A stretch of DNA of 7,129 bases from JBDRED01 sp043820025 [NCBI: Elusimicrobiota bacterium] (lineage in GTDB: Bacteria > RUG730 > JBDRED01), in the NCBI GenBank assembly GCA_043820025.1, contig JBDRED010000010.1, positions 1-7,129 of the forward strand. The letters are read 5' to 3'. Below the pieces are notes generated by a model, which worked only from the letters and a program-made list of their open reading frames with translations, made no database searches and was not told where the DNA came from. The translations under genes were made by a program, and so were the position numbers. Of this stretch, positions 1 to 6,923 are shown in pieces. Position 1 is the stretch's first letter, and each line of letters starts with the position of its first letter.

Positions 1-148
1 TTAAGGAACCGAAAGCTCCTAAAGTTAAGAAAATTAAAGAACCTAAGGTAAAGAAGGTTAAGGAACCGAAAGCTCCTAAAGTTAAGAAAATTAAAGAACC
101 GAAAGTAAAGAAGGTTAAGGAACCGAAAGCTCCTAAAGTTAAGAAAAT
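1..148 (+). repeat. 57-bp in-frame tandem repeat (minisatellite), about 2.6 copies
   Basis: Copies start at 1, 58 and 115. The period is 57 bp, which is 19 codons. Copies 1 and 2 differ at only two bases, both synonymous (Pro CCT/CCG and Lys AAG/AAA). Copy 3 is identical for its first 34 bases, then diverges into unique sequence. The encoded unit is KEPKAPKVKKIKEPKVKKV: nine Lys, two Glu and three Pro in 19 residues. Each unit is itself two related halves, an 11-residue KEPKAPKVKKI and an 8-residue KEPKVKKV. The array continues beyond the left edge, so the copy number is unknown. Confidence 0.95.
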
Positions 149-1424
149 GAAAACAAAAAAAATTAAGAAAACCAAGAGAGTCGGTAAACTAACAAAAGGA
201 AATAAAATAATTAATCAGTTAGGGGATGTCTCTTTCCTGTATAGCGCAGATGGAACAATTCAAATAGATAGTTATGAAACTTTTGATATAGCTATAAATA
301 AAGGAAAAGCTAAAGCAAGAAATCGCGCGAAAGAGATTAATGATTATTTAAATTATTGGCTAAAATATTGGAACACTAAAACAGGCGCGTTAACTTATTC
401 CGGCGAAGAAGGCGATAAAAAAGATGATACAATAACCATTAGTTATGAATTTGTTATGCAGGATGCGCCAGACAGGTCATTTATTGAAAAGGATATTGAA
501 AAGATATTAGTTAAGCTTGGGAATAAAGATGGAGTCGTCTACAATAAAACAGCAAAAGGATTTGAGATTGTATGCAGGCAGGATGTATTGTTTGAATTTG
601 ACTCAAATGAGTTTAAATTTGGCTCAATGGCAATCTTGGATATTTTAGTTGATATTGCAAAGGAGTTTAAGGAAAAAGGAACAATAACAATTAATGGTTA
701 TTCGCAAAAAAGCGTAATTGAAGGCAAAGCTAAAAAAAGAGCGTTAAAATGGAGCAGAAACATAGGCAAGGGTATTATTAAATACTCAAAAATTAATAAA
801 GTAAGATTTCTTTACACATCAAACGAAGGTTATGCAATTAAACCAAAAATATCAGTTACGTTTTATCCCTACAAAATAGCTGACATCACAGGCAAAGAAA
901 AGCAAGCGCCGAAATATAAAGGCCTTACTGTGTATAAAGAATTTGAAGACCCGGATAATCATTATCAGCCTACCGGATGGATGGGAGACACAAATGATTT
1001 AAGCATGAGCCTGTCTTGTAAGCAAGATACAAGAAGCGGGTTCAATTGTATAAAGGTTGAATATAAAGCTCGAGGAGAACAGGGTTGGGCAGGAATTTAT
1101 TGGCAGAATCCAATGAATAACTGGGGTACAAAACCCGGCGGTATTAATCTTACAGGGGCTGAAAAGCTCACATTTTGGGCAAGAGGAGAAAGAGGCGGCG
1201 AAAGGATTCGTCAGGTTAAAATAGGCGGCATTAAAGGAGAGTATGGCGATTCAGACGCTGCATGGACAGCTCCTATAACGCTGGGCAAAGCGTGGAAAGA
1301 GTATACCATTGATTTAAGAGGCAAGGATATAAGCTCTATTATCGGTGGATTTAGTTTTGTTGTTAATAAGGAAGACAATAAATATGGAGCAACATTCTAC
1401 CTAGATGATATTCGTTTCGAATAA
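1..1424 (+). CDS. Lys/Pro-repeat protein with OmpA-like segment and C-terminal carbohydrate-binding-like domain (5' partial)
   Basis: The frame is open from base 3 to the TAA at 1422-1424 (double stop TAATAA), so the gene starts outside the window. The ATG at 147 has no clear Shine-Dalgarno and sits inside the repeat coding region, so I treat it as internal. Residue numbers below count from that ATG. The visible N-terminus is a Lys/Pro-rich repeat, followed by a basic linker to about residue 20. Residues about 141-240 (VLFEFDSNEF, a TITINGYS strand, then KWSRNIGKGIIKY) resemble an OmpA-like peptidoglycan-binding domain, but the usual GHTD Asp is Gln187. Residues 51-70 look like a second copy of that domain's terminal helix. 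Residues about 258-425 form a galactose-binding-like beta-sandwich (LTFWARGERGGE, WKEYTIDLRGKD, GATFYLDDIRFE), common in carbohydrate-binding proteins. The next gene starts 14 bp downstream. A surface or periplasmic glycan/cell-wall-binding role is inferred; the exact function is unknown. Confidence 0.8.
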   Translation, partial: KEPKAPKVKKIKEPKVKKVKEPKAPKVKKIKEPKVKKVKEPKAPKVKKMKTKKIKKTKRVGKLTKGNKIINQLGDVSFLYSADGTIQIDSYETFDIAINKGKAKARNRAKEINDYLNYWLKYWNTKTGALTYSGEEGDKKDDTITISYEFVMQDAPDRSFIEKDIEKILVKLGNKDGVVYNKTAKGFEIVCRQDVLFEFDSNEFKFGSMAILDILVDIAKEFKEKGTITINGYSQKSVIEGKAKKRALKWSRNIGKGIIKYSKINKVRFLYTSNEGYAIKPKISVTFYPYKIADITGKEKQAPKYKGLTVYKEFEDPDNHYQPTGWMGDTNDLSMSLSCKQDTRSGFNCIKVEYKARGEQGWAGIYWQNPMNNWGTKPGGINLTGAEKLTFWARGERGGERIRQVKIGGIKGEYGDSDAAWTAPITLGKAWKEYTIDLRGKDISSIIGGFSFVVNKEDNKYGATFYLDDIRFE

Positions 1425-2318: not shown

Positions 2319-2337
2319 TTTTAATATATGTTAAGTG

Positions 2338-2370
2338 AGGCAGATAATTAATCTGCCTTTCTTTTTGTTT
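2338..2370 (+). terminator. Rho-independent terminator after the lipoprotein gene
   Basis: A perfect 8-bp stem, AGGCAGAT (2338-2345) with ATCTGCCT (2351-2358), closes a 5-nt AATTA loop. It is followed by a T-rich tract with single C and G interruptions (2358-2370). The other strand has no T-tract after the stem, so it acts in the + direction. It probably ends the transcript of the two surface-protein genes. It ends only 12 bp before the next start codon, so it could also act as a leader hairpin for that gene. Confidence 0.85.
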
Positions 2371-2382
2371 CCGGAGAAAAAA

Positions 2383-4311
2383 ATGTTTTTTAAAAAGGAT
2401 AAATTAGAAGATCTGCGCAAGTATGTGCGCATACCAACCGTTATCCCCGTCGAATTTGCCGTTGTAAATGACGCGCATGAAATTGTTTGGCAGACAACCT
2501 ATCAGGGTTATACAAGAAATATTAATCAGGGCGGAGTCTGTCTTGAAGTAAGCAACCTCGACGATAATTTAAGTAAAAGATTGTCGGACGGCGATTACCT
2601 GCTTAAGCTTAGTATTAACCTGCCTACTCAAGATGAGCCGATTATCGCGTATGTAAGCCCGCGATGGGTTACTAAAATTAAACAAGATGTAGCCACAAAG
2701 TTCCGCATTGGCGTTGCATTTCACACTATTGCCGATGGCGATAAAAATAAAATAATTAAGTATGTGGACAGACTCAAGAAAAGGCCAAGGCAGGCAGTGT
2801 TTGTAATTTCATTTCTAGCGTTGATTGCCGGTTTTAGCGTTGTGCACGATCTTAAGGTTCAGTATGATAACAAGAGGCTTATTCAGGAGCTTTCTGACGT
2901 GACAGTAATGCGCGATGTTATTGATACACAGCTGGATGAGTTGAATGACCTGCGTTTACAGTACGAAGAAAAACTGGACCAGGCTAATTTAAAATTAGAA
3001 TCATTGCAGGAGCAGTTTAAAGAGGTCGCTGAAGAAAAAATTGATGCTATAGAGGGTAAGATAAGGAGCATTTCTACAAATAAAGACAAACTTAGAAAAA
3101 CTCTCGAAGAGTTAATTCAAAAGGAACAAGACCTGCAGCAGAAGAAGAGCGATCTTAAAAAGGCTCAAGGTAAGATTGATAAAAAGAATGCTGTAAAAAT
3201 GTTTAATTGGATAAAGTCATGCCAGAATGCAAGGACAGGATTGGTGCCAAGCTATGAGGGCGACCCTGATTTAAGCAATTTCGCGTTTACCTATGATCAA
3301 GCATTAGCTATTGATACCTTTATCATAAATGAAAATCTAGAATCAGCAAAAAAGATATTGGATTTTTATGTCTATAGAGCAAGAAAATCAAATGGAGGGT
3401 TCTTAAACGCGTATGATTCAGTTACTGAACAGGGCGTTGAATGGAGTGTGCATGTAGGCCCTAACGCGTGGCTTGCAATGAGCGCTGTCCAGTATTATGA
3501 TAGAACCAACGCGTCAATATATTTAGATTTTGCCGAAGATATTGGAAGATGGATTTTAGGCCTTCAAGATAAGGAGGGCGGTATAAAAGGCGGCCCTGCC
3601 ACGACGTGGTATTCAACCGAACATAACATTGACGCTTACGCATTATTTAGAATGTTATACATTACTACAAATAATGTTATATATAGAGTAGCTGCTGATC
3701 GTATACTTGAATGGATAAGATTTGCAACTTATAATGAATCTGAAAAACGGTTAAATAGAGGGAAGAACGATTTTTTTGTTGCTACGGATGTTGTATCATT
3801 TGGCCTTGAATCAATTGGGCCTAAACGCTTTTTAGCTGTTGGAATAAATCCTGATGACCTTATAGATTTTGTAGAGAAGAATACCGAGGTAACAGCTGAG
3901 TTTACAAATACGCAGGGTAAGGTGTTAAAAATATCAGGGTTTGATTATACAAATCCAAGTTTGATTGGAAGGCAGGGTATTGTATCCTCGGAATGGACAG
4001 CTCAGATGATTATTGCGTATCAGATAATGGCAAGATATTATGAAAGCGCAGATCCTGTAAAAAGTAGTAAGTACGCTTACAAAGCGCAATTTTTTATGTC
4101 TGAGCTCGATAAGATGCTGATTATGCAGCCGTATTCAAAATATTTGGGCGGCGGGCTTCCTTATGCGACCGGCTCTTCTGCAAGCACCGGGCATGGCTGG
4201 ATAACTCCAAAGTCTCCTTTTGCAATTTCCGTAGCAGGGACTGCATACGCGCTTTTAGCGCGCAAAGAATTTAATCCTTTCCGTTTAGCTTCAGATAACA
4301 AATTTAGTTAG
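2383..4311 (+). CDS. PilZ domain - transmembrane - coiled coil - periplasmic alpha/alpha-toroid (glycosidase-like) protein
   Basis: I start this 642-aa protein at ATG 2383, preceded by GGAG (2373-2376) at 6-bp spacing. An in-frame GTG at 2335 would place its first codons inside a terminator hairpin. Residues 11-130 are a PilZ domain: RKYVR at 12-16 fits the RxxxR c-di-GMP motif, and NINQGG at 46-51 is a degenerate (D/N)xSxxG. RLKKRPR precedes one hydrophobic helix (about 137-155), so the PilZ side should be cytoplasmic. Residues about 158-270 are charged, heptad-like coiled coil. Residues about 272-628 are helical with toroid-type motifs (FTYDQALAI, GGFLNAY, EWSVHVGPNAWLAM, STEHNIDAYALF, SSEWTAQMIIAY, SVAGTAYALLA), resembling alpha/alpha-barrel glycosidases or glycan epimerases/lyases. 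No exact family or catalytic pair is assigned. I infer a membrane protein in which c-di-GMP may control periplasmic glycan processing. Confidence 0.82.
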   Translation: MFFKKDKLEDLRKYVRIPTVIPVEFAVVNDAHEIVWQTTYQGYTRNINQGGVCLEVSNLDDNLSKRLSDGDYLLKLSINLPTQDEPIIAYVSPRWVTKIKQDVATKFRIGVAFHTIADGDKNKIIKYVDRLKKRPRQAVFVISFLALIAGFSVVHDLKVQYDNKRLIQELSDVTVMRDVIDTQLDELNDLRLQYEEKLDQANLKLESLQEQFKEVAEEKIDAIEGKIRSISTNKDKLRKTLEELIQKEQDLQQKKSDLKKAQGKIDKKNAVKMFNWIKSCQNARTGLVPSYEGDPDLSNFAFTYDQALAIDTFIINENLESAKKILDFYVYRARKSNGGFLNAYDSVTEQGVEWSVHVGPNAWLAMSAVQYYDRTNASIYLDFAEDIGRWILGLQDKEGGIKGGPATTWYSTEHNIDAYALFRMLYITTNNVIYRVAADRILEWIRFATYNESEKRLNRGKNDFFVATDVVSFGLESIGPKRFLAVGINPDDLIDFVEKNTEVTAEFTNTQGKVLKISGFDYTNPSLIGRQGIVSSEWTAQMIIAYQIMARYYESADPVKSSKYAYKAQFFMSELDKMLIMQPYSKYLGGGLPYATGSSASTGHGWITPKSPFAISVAGTAYALLARKEFNPFRLASDNKFS

Positions 4312-4367: not shown

Positions 4368-4886
4368 ATGGGAAAAATACAAGCGGTAAAACCGGTTAAG
4401 TTATTTTGCGCGCTTATCTATAGTAATAAAGATATTTATAATAATGCAAAAAATTATTTAATAGAAAAATTTGGAGATATTGATATTGAAACTATTGAAA
4501 TAGAATTTATATTTACTGATTACTATAAAAATGAAATGGGTGAAACTCTGACTCGAAGATTTCTTAGTTTTAGAAATTTAATAAATCCTGCTGATCTAAG
4601 CGGAATAAAGCACATAACAAATGATATTGAGTCTTCTTATTTAGAGTCCGGGAATAGAAAAATAAATATTGATCCGGGTTATTTGGACGAAGCAAAGGTT
4701 GTTTTAGCTACCACAAAAGATTATACGCATAGAGTGTATATCGGCGAAAACATGTACGCAGAAGTTACTCTTTATTTTAACGACAAAATTTATAAACCTT
4801 GGCCATGGACATACCCTGATTATAAAACAAAAGAATATATTGGTTTTTTTATGGAGATGAGAGGATTTTATAGAGAAAAATTTTAA
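4368..4886 (+). CDS. DUF4416 family protein
   Basis: This 172-aa protein matches the DUF4416 pattern almost end to end: KPVKLFCALIYS (8-19), FTDYY...EMG (49-58), RRFLSF (63-68), a NIDPGYL block (100-106), LATTKD (113-118), HRVYIG (121-126), AEVTL (131-135) and PWTYPDY (146-152). The length is normal for the family, with no signal peptide or membrane segment, so it should be cytosolic. The family's function is unknown. The start is ATG 4368 with a weak AGG (4361-4363) four bases upstream; another ATG at 4357 is out of frame. It leads a three-gene unit, with the ParB-like gene starting 23 bp after its stop. The conserved Asp/Thr/Lys/His-rich motifs could form an active site, but that is a guess from conservation only. 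Confidence 0.88.
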   Translation: MGKIQAVKPVKLFCALIYSNKDIYNNAKNYLIEKFGDIDIETIEIEFIFTDYYKNEMGETLTRRFLSFRNLINPADLSGIKHITNDIESSYLESGNRKINIDPGYLDEAKVVLATTKDYTHRVYIGENMYAEVTLYFNDKIYKPWPWTYPDYKTKEYIGFFMEMRGFYREKF

Positions 4887-4909
4887 AGTTTTTACATTCG
4901 CGAGGGTTA

Positions 4910-5842
4910 ATGAAAGTATATAAGGTTCCAATAGAAAAAATTAATACTACTAATACTAAATATATTTTTAGTTATCCTTTAATGCCGGATAGAATGGTTG
5001 AATCTGTAAAGAATGCAGGGATATTACAGCCAATCTTAGTCGAGAAACAGAAAGATGAATATTTTGTGCTGGACGGAATAAGAAGGGTTTTGGCAGCAAA
5101 AAAATTAGGCATAGAAAATATTTATATTCAGGAATATGAGGGGCCGGATTCTATATTTGATAAGATCAAAACAGTTATATACGCTAATATGTCTCATAGG
5201 GCATTTAATGAAGTTGAAAAAGCGGTTATCATGAGTAAGACAGCAGGCAATAGCGGGTTATTGCAGATAGTTTTAAATATTTTAGGCATATCTCAAAATA
5301 TTATTTTAATTGATAAATATAAACGTCTTGCAAACGAAGAAAACAGCATTAAGATGCTGGTGTATGAGGGCAGGTTAAAGTTAAACTCTGTATATGACTT
5401 AACTTTTTTTAATTACGCCGATAAATCACAAATTGTCTTACTAACTCAGGAATTACAATGTTCAGCGAGCATAGCTCAAGAAATAATAGAAAATTCTAAA
5501 GATATAATTCTTGGTTCCGATAATGAAGAAAATACATTTGAAGAGCTGGCGCATGCAGTTGGCGTTAATGAAATATTTGGAAATGATAGTTTAAACGTTT
5601 CAGAAAAACTTGGCGTTTTGCGAGATAGAATAAGGAAGAAAAGATACCCCGGGCTTAGCAGAAAAGAAGAAGAGTTTAATAAATTTTCAAAATCGCTCAA
5701 TTGTATAAATGGCGTGTCATGCGGCCATACTCCTTTTTTTGAGAATGAATCAAAGGAACTGAAAATTTCATACAATAATTATCATGAATTAAATCAAAAG
5801 ATTGAACAGGTTCGTAAAAAAATAGAAAATGAAGAATATTAA
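4910..5842 (+). CDS. ParB/Srx-superfamily domain protein with HTH-like middle region
   Basis: This 310-aa protein has an N-terminal ParB-like domain (about 1-105): MVESVKNAGILQPILV (29-44) matches the first ParB box, DGIRRVLAAKKLG (55-67) the GERR/DGxxR box, and ANMSHRAFNEVEKA (92-105) the ENxxR box. Residues about 117-165 look like the ParB/KorB helix-turn-helix region (LNILGISQNIILIDKYKRL, then YEGRLKLNSVYDL). The C-terminal third (about 200-310) is charged and helical, ending in a possible coiled coil, with Cys265 and Cys271; I do not recognise it. It starts at ATG 4910 with GAGGG at 4902-4906. The SPL-like gene starts inside its last codons. No parA or parS-like site is visible, so chromosome partitioning is unlikely to be its job. 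DNA binding or a nucleotide-dependent switch with the adjacent radical SAM enzyme is inference. Confidence 0.82.
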   Translation: MKVYKVPIEKINTTNTKYIFSYPLMPDRMVESVKNAGILQPILVEKQKDEYFVLDGIRRVLAAKKLGIENIYIQEYEGPDSIFDKIKTVIYANMSHRAFNEVEKAVIMSKTAGNSGLLQIVLNILGISQNIILIDKYKRLANEENSIKMLVYEGRLKLNSVYDLTFFNYADKSQIVLLTQELQCSASIAQEIIENSKDIILGSDNEENTFEELAHAVGVNEIFGNDSLNVSEKLGVLRDRIRKKRYPGLSRKEEEFNKFSKSLNCINGVSCGHTPFFENESKELKISYNNYHELNQKIEQVRKKIENEEY

Positions 5843-6923
5843 AAGACTATATATTGAACAAAGTGTTTTGAATAATAAATATGCGGAAAGGATCATTAGC
5901 AGGTTAGAAATAGATCCGATTATAATTAATCATTATAAAGATCTTAACGCGAATGACAGGCAGTTAAAAGAATCTATTATACTGGCTGAACAGCGTGGAA
6001 GATATCTGAAACCCTGCCCATGCACGCCAAAATATATAGGCTGTAAGTATTATGTTCTTGAGCTGGTAATGGGCTGCGGCTTTGATTGTTCCTATTGTTA
6101 TCTTCAACAGTATCAAAATCAGCCCGGCATGATAGTTTATGTAAATCTCGAAAAAATGTTTGAAGAGTTAAGCGCCAGGTTAGATGAAGACCCAAATGAA
6201 TTGACAAGGATTGGAACAGGCGAATTTACTGATTCGCTTTTCTTGGACGAATACACAGGCCATACTAATGACTTAACTGAATATCTTGCGAATAATCATA
6301 AAAATTATATTATTGAATACAAAACAAAGAGCAATAATATCGCAAATCTTCTTAAGAGTAAGCCTACAGGCAACGAAGTTATCAGCTGGTCATTAAATCC
6401 AAGCCGTATTTCTTTGAGCGATGAAAATGGCGCTCCGGCGCCGGAAGATAGGCTTGAGTCTGCAAAAAAATGTATTCAGCATGGGTATTATATTGGCCTG
6501 CATTTTGATCCAATAATATATTTTAAGGGTTATGAGGATGAGTATAATGATTTAATTGATAAGGTGTATAATTATTTGGATAAGGACAGAATTTTATGGA
6601 TTAGTTTAGGCACATTGCGATTTAACTCTGAGTTAAAATCTATAATGGAATATAGGCATCCCATGAGCAGGATTCATTTTGGAGAAATGATAAAAGGGCT
6701 AGATGGGAAGACGCGGTATTTTAAAGATTTAAGAAAGGAAATGTACAGGGCTATAACAAGTAAAATAAAGGGTTATGATAAAAACGCGTTTATTTACTTT
6801 TGTATGGAAGATAGGGAGATATGGAATGATGTTTTAGGCCTGGATATTAATAATTCTGAAGATGTACATAAACTTTTTTGTAAGAGGCGGAAGGAGTTGA
6901 AAAATAATGAAATGCTGCGCTGA
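5829..6923 (+). CDS. SPL-family (spore photoproduct lyase-like) radical SAM protein
   Basis: This 364-aa protein has the SPL-family N-terminus (KRLYIEQSVL) and the radical SAM cluster motif CGFDCSYCYLQ, with Cys83, Cys87 and Cys90 to bind [4Fe-4S]; the two Tyr of this motif (89, 91), functional in SPL, are present. Later family-type segments are RIGTGEFTDSLFLD (127-140), VISWSLNP (184-191), GYYIGLHFDPII (219-230) and ILWISLGTLRF (255-265). Where Bacillus SPL has its H-donor Cys (Cys141, in a CTSD context) this protein reads GEFTD, Glu132 (alignment by eye), so true spore photoproduct repair is doubtful. Extra Cys63, Cys65 and Cys72 precede the cluster. The start ATG overlaps the ParB-like gene by 14 bp without a strong ribosome binding site, implying translational coupling. 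Family membership is firm; substrate and reaction are unknown, a DNA lesion or modified base being possible. Confidence 0.87.
   Translation: MKNIKRLYIEQSVLNNKYAERIISRLEIDPIIINHYKDLNANDRQLKESIILAEQRGRYLKPCPCTPKYIGCKYYVLELVMGCGFDCSYCYLQQYQNQPGMIVYVNLEKMFEELSARLDEDPNELTRIGTGEFTDSLFLDEYTGHTNDLTEYLANNHKNYIIEYKTKSNNIANLLKSKPTGNEVISWSLNPSRISLSDENGAPAPEDRLESAKKCIQHGYYIGLHFDPIIYFKGYEDEYNDLIDKVYNYLDKDRILWISLGTLRFNSELKSIMEYRHPMSRIHFGEMIKGLDGKTRYFKDLRKEMYRAITSKIKGYDKNAFIYFCMEDREIWNDVLGLDINNSEDVHKLFCKRRKELKNNEMLR

What the first reader, a model, noticed from the sequence alone, without database searches (positions are those of the whole stretch)
4368..6923. DUF4416 - ParB-like - SPL-like radical SAM operon as a candidate undescribed system
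Three tightly packed genes, the last two overlapping by 14 bp, join a family of unknown function, a putative DNA- or nucleotide-binding ParB-superfamily protein and a radical SAM enzyme from a DNA-repair family. The coupling of ParB-like and SPL-like genes suggests a working pair: one recognises DNA or senses a nucleotide, the other does radical chemistry on a base or lesion. No sporulation gene is visible.
Basis: inference. Interest (0 to 1): 0.75.

Follow-up and report, generated by a model that had tools for sequence, protein, structure and literature searches.

The report
ParB-like partner of radical-SAM enzyme
Two overlapping genes in this window belong to a conserved, apparently undescribed bacterial partnership between a nucleotide-binding ParB-like protein and an unusual relative of a DNA-repair enzyme, but the third gene named in the finding is only a neighbour.

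Summary
In detail: DUF4416 (4368-4886), a ParB_N protein (4910-5842) and an SPL-like radical SAM enzyme (5829-6923), the last two overlapping by 14 bp. The ParB-SPL pairing is real. In 198 genomes of a deltaproteobacterial phylum, 79 carry orthologues of this ParB-like protein; 75 of those also carry the SPL, and in 44 the two are adjacent, ParB-like first, often behind a GT2 glycosyltransferase. In sampled Omnitrophota the two are not adjacent; there 54 of 82 genomes have an SPL with the ParB-like C-terminal domain fused to its N-terminus (profile match E 5.5e-9; reversed controls negative), and no genome has both the fusion and the ParB-like gene. Three loci encode the domain alone, beside SPL. 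The C-terminal domain is best read as the SPL's partner and the ParB fold, with its nucleotide motif intact (72/72), as an added switch. DUF4416 is not part of it. Spore-lesion repair is unlikely: Cys141 is Glu/Gln in 137 of 138 sequences and Tyr99 is lost in 104. Four other cysteines, one switching between two positions, suggest an auxiliary metal site. The substrate is unknown.

The parts
4368..4886 (+). DUF4416 protein (172 aa); neighbour, not part of the conserved unit
   Evidence: PF14385 E 2.6e-60; 0 of 60 loci in the deltaproteobacterial phylum by BLAST; 2 of 28 ParB-like loci in Omnitrophota; PilZ-type gene directly upstream in 12 of 20 loci, by eye
4910..5842 (+). ParB-like protein (310 aa), whole
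   Evidence: PF02195 E 2.3e-7; orthologues (28/384; 79/198); AlphaFold2 model pLDDT 94.5, pTM 0.87
4910..5449 (+). ParB N-terminal (ParB/sulfiredoxin) fold and ParB-type helical part, residues 1-180
   Evidence: Foldseek to ParB/Noc/KorB chains, best E 4.0e-8; VIA-align Z 11.5 for residues 1-96 and 11.4 for 1-206; HTH_ParB hits in two relatives are below cut-off
5075..5086 (+). GxxR nucleotide (P) motif, Gly56-Arg59
   Evidence: Gly56 and Arg59 invariant in 72 of 72 sequences; motif named in PMC12704722
5450..5710 (+). C-terminal SPL-partner domain, residues 181-267, with R-[YF]-P motif (5642-5650)
   Evidence: hhalign prob 95.9, E 5.5e-9 (one comparison) to the N-terminal extension of fused SPLs, controls prob 0.4-0.5; stand-alone form in L311, L314, L315
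5829..6923 (+). SPL-like radical SAM enzyme (364 aa)
   Evidence: PF20903 E 5.7e-29; relatives; model of a fused relative matches 4rh0, E 5.1e-22
6015..6044 (+). CPCTPKYIGC loop: Cys63, Cys65, Cys72 of the putative four-cysteine site
   Evidence: Cys63 127/138, Cys72 138/138, exactly one of Cys65/Cys71 in 126/138 (window included)
6075..6098 (+). radical SAM CxxxCxxC motif, Cys83, Cys87, Cys90
   Evidence: 138/138
6213..6224 (+). GTGE motif; Glu132 replaces the SPL H-donor Cys141
   Evidence: Glu in 54/54 deltaproteobacterial-phylum and 74/84 Omnitrophota-plus-window sequences, Gln in 9, His in 1
6801..6803 (+). Cys325 (here YFCME), fourth cysteine of the putative site
   Evidence: 130/138

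Best explanation
The ParB-like and SPL-like genes encode the two parts of one enzyme system. The SPL-like protein is the catalyst: a radical SAM enzyme of a large subfamily that has lost the Cys141 (and mostly the Tyr99) of the spore photoproduct lyase relay and has gained a four-cysteine site, probably an auxiliary Fe-S cluster or other metal site. It therefore probably consumes SAM and releases 5'-deoxyadenosine, instead of regenerating SAM as SPL does. The ParB-like protein is its partner: its C-terminal helical domain (residues about 181-267) docks on the N-terminal side of the SPL core, and its ParB N-terminal fold binds an NTP and acts as a switch or targeting part. In lineages without the ParB-like protein the docking domain is fused to the enzyme. 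A GT2 glycosyltransferase is the third recurring member. DUF4416 is a chance or older neighbour. Shown: homology, gene order, fusion, exclusivity in the sample, conserved residues. Inferred: physical contact, NTP switching, metal cluster, SAM consumption. Unknown: the substrate.
For: Adjacency: 44 of 79 genomes with the ParB-like gene have it directly before SPL, a lower bound, since adjacent ParB-like genes in L316 and L321 fell under the genome-wide cut-off; 23 of 40 fetched pairs overlap, with starts taken as the longest ORF. Co-occurrence in that phylum: both 75, SPL only 35, ParB-like only 4, neither 84. Fusion: the N-terminal extension of 31 long SPLs is homologous to ParB-like residues 181-267 (hhalign E 5.5e-9; controls prob 0.4-0.5); over 7,021 ORFs its HMM hits only SPLs (83) and ParB-like or stand-alone domains (34) (some genes occur in more than one locus, and the training rows are among the hits). 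Exclusivity: of 82 Omnitrophota genomes, 54 fused without ParB-like, 21 unfused with ParB-like, 7 neither, 0 both. The window's SPL is sister to the clade of fused SPLs, 99/98, midpoint root. Models: ParB-like pLDDT 94.5/pTM 0.87; fused SPL 91.5/0.90 with matching helices around the R-Y-P motif. GxxR 72/72. Four cysteines. GT2 in 60 of 138 SPL loci, always on the same strand, at -1 or -2.
Against: In the 28 Omnitrophota loci of the ParB-like gene SPL is never near; the gene sits in another constant cluster, so it may have another job there. 35 of 110 SPL genomes in the other phylum lack a ParB-like gene at the cut-off; of the 10 of these whose SPL locus I fetched, 3 have the stand-alone domain, 3 a ParB-like gene below the cut-off (L316, L321, L366), 1 a fusion (L362) and 3 nothing visible (L323, L363, L365). 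7 of 82 Omnitrophota genomes have neither form, one of them with SPL cut by a contig end. P values are not corrected for descent. No complex was modelled and no cysteine distances could be measured. Eleven relatives lack part of the cysteine set. Both window proteins sit on long branches.
Confidence: 0.6

Rival explanations
1. DNA lesion repair or base modification: the ParB-like protein finds DNA through its HTH part and delivers the SPL-like enzyme to a thymine lesion or base.
For: SPL fold (4rh0 E 5.1e-22); ParB and Noc DNA-binding structures align with residues 75-208 (Z 6-7, a range the tool calls common); SPL of Clostridium acetobutylicum uses another cysteine, C74, as donor (PMC5368176 passages), and phmmer aligns window Cys65 with the Cys at the S76C place of the C140A/S76C SPL structure 4rh0; the window keeps Tyr at the Tyr99 place.
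Against: Cys141 is Glu/Gln in 137 of 138 sequences and Tyr99 is Ile/Val/Phe/Ala in 104 of 138; Cys65 is kept in only 60 of 138 and alternates with Cys71; the fused forms keep only the C-terminal domain; HTH_ParB matches are below Pfam's cut-off; GT2 is the commonest further partner.
Confidence: 0.17
2. Small-molecule or surface-glycan pathway: the SPL-like enzyme joins or activates a metabolite by 5'-deoxyadenosyl radical chemistry, a nucleoside phosphorylase removes adenine or the by-product, and the GT2 glycosylates the product, in the manner of HpnH/HpnG in hopanoid synthesis (recalled). The ParB-like part is an NTP-sensing regulator.
For: Recurring neighbours by unsupervised clustering: GT2 in 60/138 loci; a phosphorylase-superfamily protein at -1 in 10 of 84 Omnitrophota loci (9 on the same strand); an SDR within four genes in 10 of 54 loci of the other phylum. 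Pfam PNP_UDP_1 E 3.6e-10 (L219) and 3.2e-38 (L321, directly downstream of SPL), Glycos_transf_2 E 1.7e-36. HpnG and HpnB models hit weakly, far below cut-off.
Against: No substrate-specific enzyme is shared by all loci; GT2 and phosphorylase are absent from the window and from many loci; phosphorylases may only clear 5'-deoxyadenosine.
Confidence: 0.3
3. The ParB-like protein is a transcriptional regulator of its own operon and never touches the enzyme.
For: Upstream position and ParB-type fold with a helical part like the ParB HTH; KorB and Noc relatives regulate or bind DNA (known).
Against: Its C-terminal domain is fused to the enzyme in Omnitrophota and stands alone beside SPL in L311, L314, L315; in 31 of 79 genomes the gene is not adjacent to SPL yet co-occurs with it.
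Confidence: 0.1
4. Chance neighbours in one lineage.
For: Of 86 fetched Omnitrophota SPL occurrences none of the 83 with an upstream gene in view has the ParB-like gene there; 3 lie at a contig edge.
Against: 44 adjacent pairs in another phylum, and the fusion.
Confidence: 0.02

Closest known systems
Spore photoproduct lyase (SplB; PF20903, TIGR04070; structures 4fhc-4fhg, 4rh0)
   Same: Radical SAM fold, CxxxCxxC, Tyr97 (window Tyr89, 138/138), overall fold of a fused relative (E 5.1e-22)
   Different: No Cys141 (Glu/Gln in 137 of 138), no Tyr99 in 104 of 138 (the window has Tyr), four extra conserved cysteines, 113 bits against the TIGR04070 cut-off of 400, partner protein, GT2 neighbour
ParB/Noc/KorB family of CTP-dependent DNA clamps
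   Same: N-terminal ParB/Srx fold, GxxR motif, ParB-type helical region
   Different: C-terminal domain is the SPL-partner domain, which ordinary ParB profiles do not match; TIGR00180 36.1 bits against cut-off 58.45; no parA in the window; partner is a radical SAM enzyme
Orphan ParB-CTPase-fold proteins with fused domains (survey PMC12704722)
   Same: ParB fold outside parAB with an extra domain and an intact GxxR
   Different: The section on domain fusions, which I read whole, lists no radical SAM partner; the terms radical SAM, photoproduct and glycosyltransferase occur 0 times in the main text
Clostridial and other distant SPL relatives (L001-L003, L035-L102), some beside a phosphorylase-like gene and an SDR
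   Same: SPL-family radical SAM enzyme with a recurring helper gene
   Different: Only 24-33% identity to the window's enzyme; SYDTD-type motif in place of GTGE and another cysteine pattern in most; no ParB-like gene by tblastn with the window protein

Membership tests
Spore photoproduct lyase | CxxxCxxC radical SAM motif and SPL fold | tested here: met
   motif 138/138; model of a fused relative to 4rh0, E 5.1e-22, TMt 0.80
Spore photoproduct lyase | H-donor Cys141 (B. subtilis numbering) | tested here: not met
   Glu132 in the window; Glu/Gln in 137 of 138 sequences
Spore photoproduct lyase | Relay Tyr99 | tested here: inconclusive
   Tyr91 in the window, but Tyr in only 34 of 138 of the subfamily
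Spore photoproduct lyase | NCBIfam equivalog cut-off (TIGR04070, TIGR03886) | tested here: not met
   113.2 against 400 and 39.6 against 437.55 bits
Spore photoproduct lyase | Repair of spore photoproduct | not testable with these tools
   needs an assay
ParB/Noc (canonical partition or occlusion protein) | ParB N-terminal fold with GxxR motif | tested here: met
   PF02195 over cut-off; GxxR 72/72; fold
ParB/Noc (canonical partition or occlusion protein) | TIGR00180 cut-off | tested here: not met
   36.1 against 58.45 bits
ParB/Noc (canonical partition or occlusion protein) | ParA partner and parS site | not tested
   no ParA among the six larger ORFs of the window; parS not searched
ParB/Noc (canonical partition or occlusion protein) | CTP binding | not testable with these tools
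   motif present only; abstract of PMC12704722: relatives may bind ATP or GTP instead
DUF4416-ParB-SPL as one system (the finding) | ParB-like and SPL linked across phyla | tested here: met
   44 of 79 adjacent; fusion
DUF4416-ParB-SPL as one system (the finding) | DUF4416 linked to the pair | tested here: not met
   0 of 60 loci by BLAST; 2 of 28 ParB-like loci, without SPL

The most novel reading that the evidence does not exclude
A new class of radical SAM system in which an NTP-switching ParB-fold protein controls or targets an SPL-derived enzyme that carries a second, four-cysteine metal cluster. The enzyme consumes SAM in an uncharacterised reaction, coupled in many lineages to a dedicated GT2 glycosyltransferase. 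ParB folds are so far known (to me) as DNA clamps, kinases, nucleases and sulfiredoxins, not as switches of radical enzymes.
Probability: 0.35. Interest if true: 0.85.

Novelty: new variant of a known kind. Interest (0 to 1): 0.68.

Why it matters
The subfamily is common (146 of 384 sampled Omnitrophota genomes at E 1e-15; 110 of 198 in the other phylum at E 5.4e-40 or better). Its members match Pfam's spore photoproduct lyase model although they lack that enzyme's catalytic cysteine. The work gives three testable statements: a partner domain shared by fusion, a four-cysteine auxiliary site, and a ParB-type nucleotide switch on a radical enzyme. It also adds a radical SAM partner to the growing list of jobs of the ParB fold.

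Tried and rejected
Exact-peptide scans of viral contigs with the window's proteins found no relatives; the scan with a typed 59-residue fragment gave only 9-residue matches, and the scan with alignment A1 only distant SPL relatives (21-26% identity). The phage and plasmid searches also gave only distant SPL relatives.

First wrong turn, told because it changed the verdict: after the Omnitrophota searches I had concluded that the ParB-SPL pairing was not conserved, because no Omnitrophota SPL locus had the ParB-like gene beside it and GT2 was the commonest neighbour. The search of the second phylum reversed this.

DUF4416 as a third member: rejected, with the reservation that in the only two of the 28 ParB-like Omnitrophota genomes that also have DUF4416 the two lie in one cluster (L117, L186), as in the window.

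Defence system or phage origin: PADLOC matches were negligible (E 0.01 or worse) and PHROGs matched mainly ParB-like partition models, a radical SAM model and families of unknown function. Promoter-like sites were fewer than in shuffles (11 against 14.6) and terminator-like sites near the shuffled mean (2 against 1.4), so uninformative.

VIA-align rows for residues 247-310 (aIF2, polymerase beta, Z up to 6.0) are in the range of common arrangements and were not used. The Fusobacterium 623-aa protein was suspected to be a phosphorylase-SPL fusion, but Pfam found only SPL and radical SAM in it. Whether the cysteines meet in space could not be checked because model coordinates are not given. Paper searches: 0 papers; 1, not read; 0; 1, listing only: a C. 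acetobutylicum genome paper with one mention of each term; 4, listing only; 17, ten listed; passages of PMC10853773 seen, no such pair.
Full report
What is there. The window holds the three genes at the stated places, on one strand and tightly packed: DUF4416 (4368-4886), a ParB_N protein (4910-5842) and an SPL-like radical SAM protein (5829-6923), the last two overlapping by 14 bp. Upstream lie a protein with a sub-threshold OmpA match, an unannotated 287-aa protein and a PilZ protein with a sub-threshold prenyltransferase-like region. No whole genome is held for the window; its organism is unknown.

Omnitrophota. In 384 Omnitrophota genomes the SPL is found in 146 at E 1e-15 and DUF4416 in 209. 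The window's ParB-like protein alone finds 4. A profile of five ParB-like proteins (A2) finds orthologues at E 2.8e-33 or better in 28 genomes, two of them cut by contig ends, with a gap to ordinary ParB proteins at 1e-22 and worse. 27 of the 28 lie in one order of 47 genomes. Their neighbourhood is constant: Ste24-like protease, TPR protein, ParB-like, BatD-like protein (names given by eye from the sequences, not by a family search). SPL is in none of the 28 loci and DUF4416 in two, L117 and L186 (contigs end early in several). Of the 28 genomes 22 also have SPL, always on another contig. Among 86 fetched SPL occurrences (two genes counted twice) the immediate upstream gene is a GT2 glycosyltransferase in 44, something else in 39, out of view in 3, and the ParB-like gene in none. 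On this evidence alone the pairing looked accidental.

The second phylum. The picture changed in the phylum of a MAG labelled Deltaproteobacteria bacterium (L057 = G386; 198 genomes drawn from a larger group). SPL was found in 117 genomes at E 1e-20; for the counts below I kept the 110 genomes with a row at 5.4e-40 or better and dropped 7 with weaker rows. The ParB-like profile finds 79 genomes at E 1e-22, most matched nearly end to end, a few in part. In 44 of the 79 the ParB-like gene lies directly before SPL on the same strand, at most 488 bp between matches; in 9 it is elsewhere on the same contig, in 22 on another contig, and 4 have no SPL row. Co-occurrence over 198 genomes: both 75, SPL only 35, ParB-like only 4, neither 84. 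The cut-off makes these lower bounds: L316 and L321 hold adjacent pairs not among the 44. In 60 fetched loci (32 of the last 40 chosen because of adjacency, so not an unbiased sample) 40 pairs are adjacent and 23 overlap; GT2 is directly upstream of 18 of 47 ParB-like genes. The order GT2, ParB-like, SPL thus joins the two pictures.

The fusion. Many Omnitrophota SPLs are about 100 residues longer at the N-terminus. A profile of 31 such extensions matches the ParB-like family at window residues 181-267 (hhalign probability 95.9, E 5.5e-9 for this one comparison, 81 columns). Reversed profiles and five ordinary ParB proteins give probabilities of 0.4-0.5. Against 7,021 ORFs the extension HMM hits 83 SPLs and 34 ParB-like or stand-alone domains and nothing else; the SPLs it was built from are among the hits and some genes occur in several loci. 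Three loci (L311, L314, L315) encode the domain alone, 168-175 aa, directly before SPL. In 82 Omnitrophota genomes with a fetched SPL, 54 are fused and lack the ParB-like gene, 21 are unfused and have it, 7 have neither (one with SPL cut by a contig end), 0 have both (not corrected for descent). One genome of the other phylum, L362, is fused too. The window's SPL is sister to the clade of fused SPLs (99/98, midpoint root, long branch; 33 rows, one of them, L213, cut by a contig end), while its ParB-like protein groups with the deltaproteobacterial ones (97/86, long branch). The window therefore looks like the two-gene state beside the fused one.

The ParB-like protein. AlphaFold2 gives a confident model (pLDDT 94.5, pTM 0.87). 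Residues 1 to about 200 match ParB, Noc and KorB. Gly56 and Arg59 of the GxxR motif, whose Arg-to-Ala variants served as non-binding controls in the ParB-fold survey (PMC12704722, passages), are invariant in 72 of 72. The fused relative L025 is also modelled well as a whole (pLDDT 91.5, pTM 0.90), with helices 59-73 and 75-80 around its R-Y-P at 73-75, as helices 230-245 and 247-263 stand around R-Y-P 245-247 in the window protein.

The enzyme. In SPL the substrate radical takes hydrogen from Cys141, and Tyr99, helped by Tyr97, passes the radical back to 5'-deoxyadenosine (PMC5368176, passages). Over 138 sequences including the window, the Cys141 position is Glu in 128, Gln in 9 and His in 1, and the Tyr99 position is Tyr in only 34, the window among them. 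So SPL-type recycling is unlikely for most of the subfamily. Four other cysteines are conserved: Cys63 in 127, Cys72 in 138, Cys325 in 130, and exactly one of Cys65 and Cys71 in 126, both in 1, neither in 11. The 11 without either are the same 11 with Phe63, and some of these have lost Cys325 too. One ligand moving between two places while the total stays four is what a metal site would leave. Contact between the loop and Cys325 is inferred, not measured. Clostridial SPL uses a donor cysteine at C74, and phmmer aligns Cys65 with the engineered Cys of 4rh0; this leaves a DNA-repair role possible.

Function. Recurring neighbours in 138 loci are GT2 (60), a phosphorylase-superfamily protein (10, Omnitrophota) and an SDR (10, the other phylum) (Pfam of examples). 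They fit an enzyme that makes 5'-deoxyadenosine and a product that may be glycosylated, better than they fit DNA repair. I commit to the two-part enzyme with an NTP-binding partner; the substrate is open.

DUF4416. In 20 fetched Omnitrophota loci it directly follows a PilZ-type gene in 12 and lies two genes behind one in 2 (by eye). A PilZ protein also stands before it in the window. It is best read as the end of that neighbouring block.

Literature. Searches for DUF4416, SPL family names, SPL with ParB, COG1533 and ParB with radical SAM showed no description of the pair in the held open-access library; most of the few papers found were seen as listings only. Of the 2025 survey of ParB folds I read the outline, passages and the domain-fusion section; it does not mention the pair there.

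Noticed in passing
window 3-150: The protein with a weak OmpA match begins with a lysine-rich repeat (KEPKAPKVKKIKEPKVKKVK repeated), cut by the window start.
   Followed up: no
window 2335-4311: One protein joins a PilZ domain (E 2.1e-7) to a prenyltransferase-like toroid (sub-threshold); PilZ-type genes often stand before DUF4416 in other Omnitrophota (by eye).
   Followed up: partly
L116-L119, L180-L203: Constant cluster around the ParB-like gene, almost wholly in one Omnitrophota order: Ste24-like, TPR protein, ParB-like, BatD-like, often TrpB and TrpA beyond (names by eye); no SPL there, so the ParB-like gene may have another role.
   Followed up: partly
L001 4098-5969; L002, L003: Distant clostridial and fusobacterial SPL relatives stand beside an SDR and a phosphorylase-like protein, or behind a similar N-terminal half in Fusobacterium; Pfam did not confirm the phosphorylase in the Fusobacterium protein and only weakly in L003.
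   Followed up: partly
L218, L219, L253, L262, L265, L272, L274-L276: A phosphorylase-superfamily protein of about 231 aa overlaps the start of the fused SPL in place of GT2; Pfam checked for L219 only.
   Followed up: partly
L153, L155, L156, L158, L162, L163, L165, L166, L168, L209, L210: Eleven short Omnitrophota SPLs have Phe at position 63 and have lost the fourth cysteine as well; a natural set without the putative metal site.
   Followed up: partly
L152, L160, L215: SPL preceded by a protein like the pyruvate-kinase C-terminal domain (PK_C, sub-threshold for L152; the other two by eye).
   Followed up: no
L044 (558 aa): A WOR-3 SPL relative with a long N-terminal part of unknown nature and GDFSDS in place of GEFTDS.
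   Followed up: no
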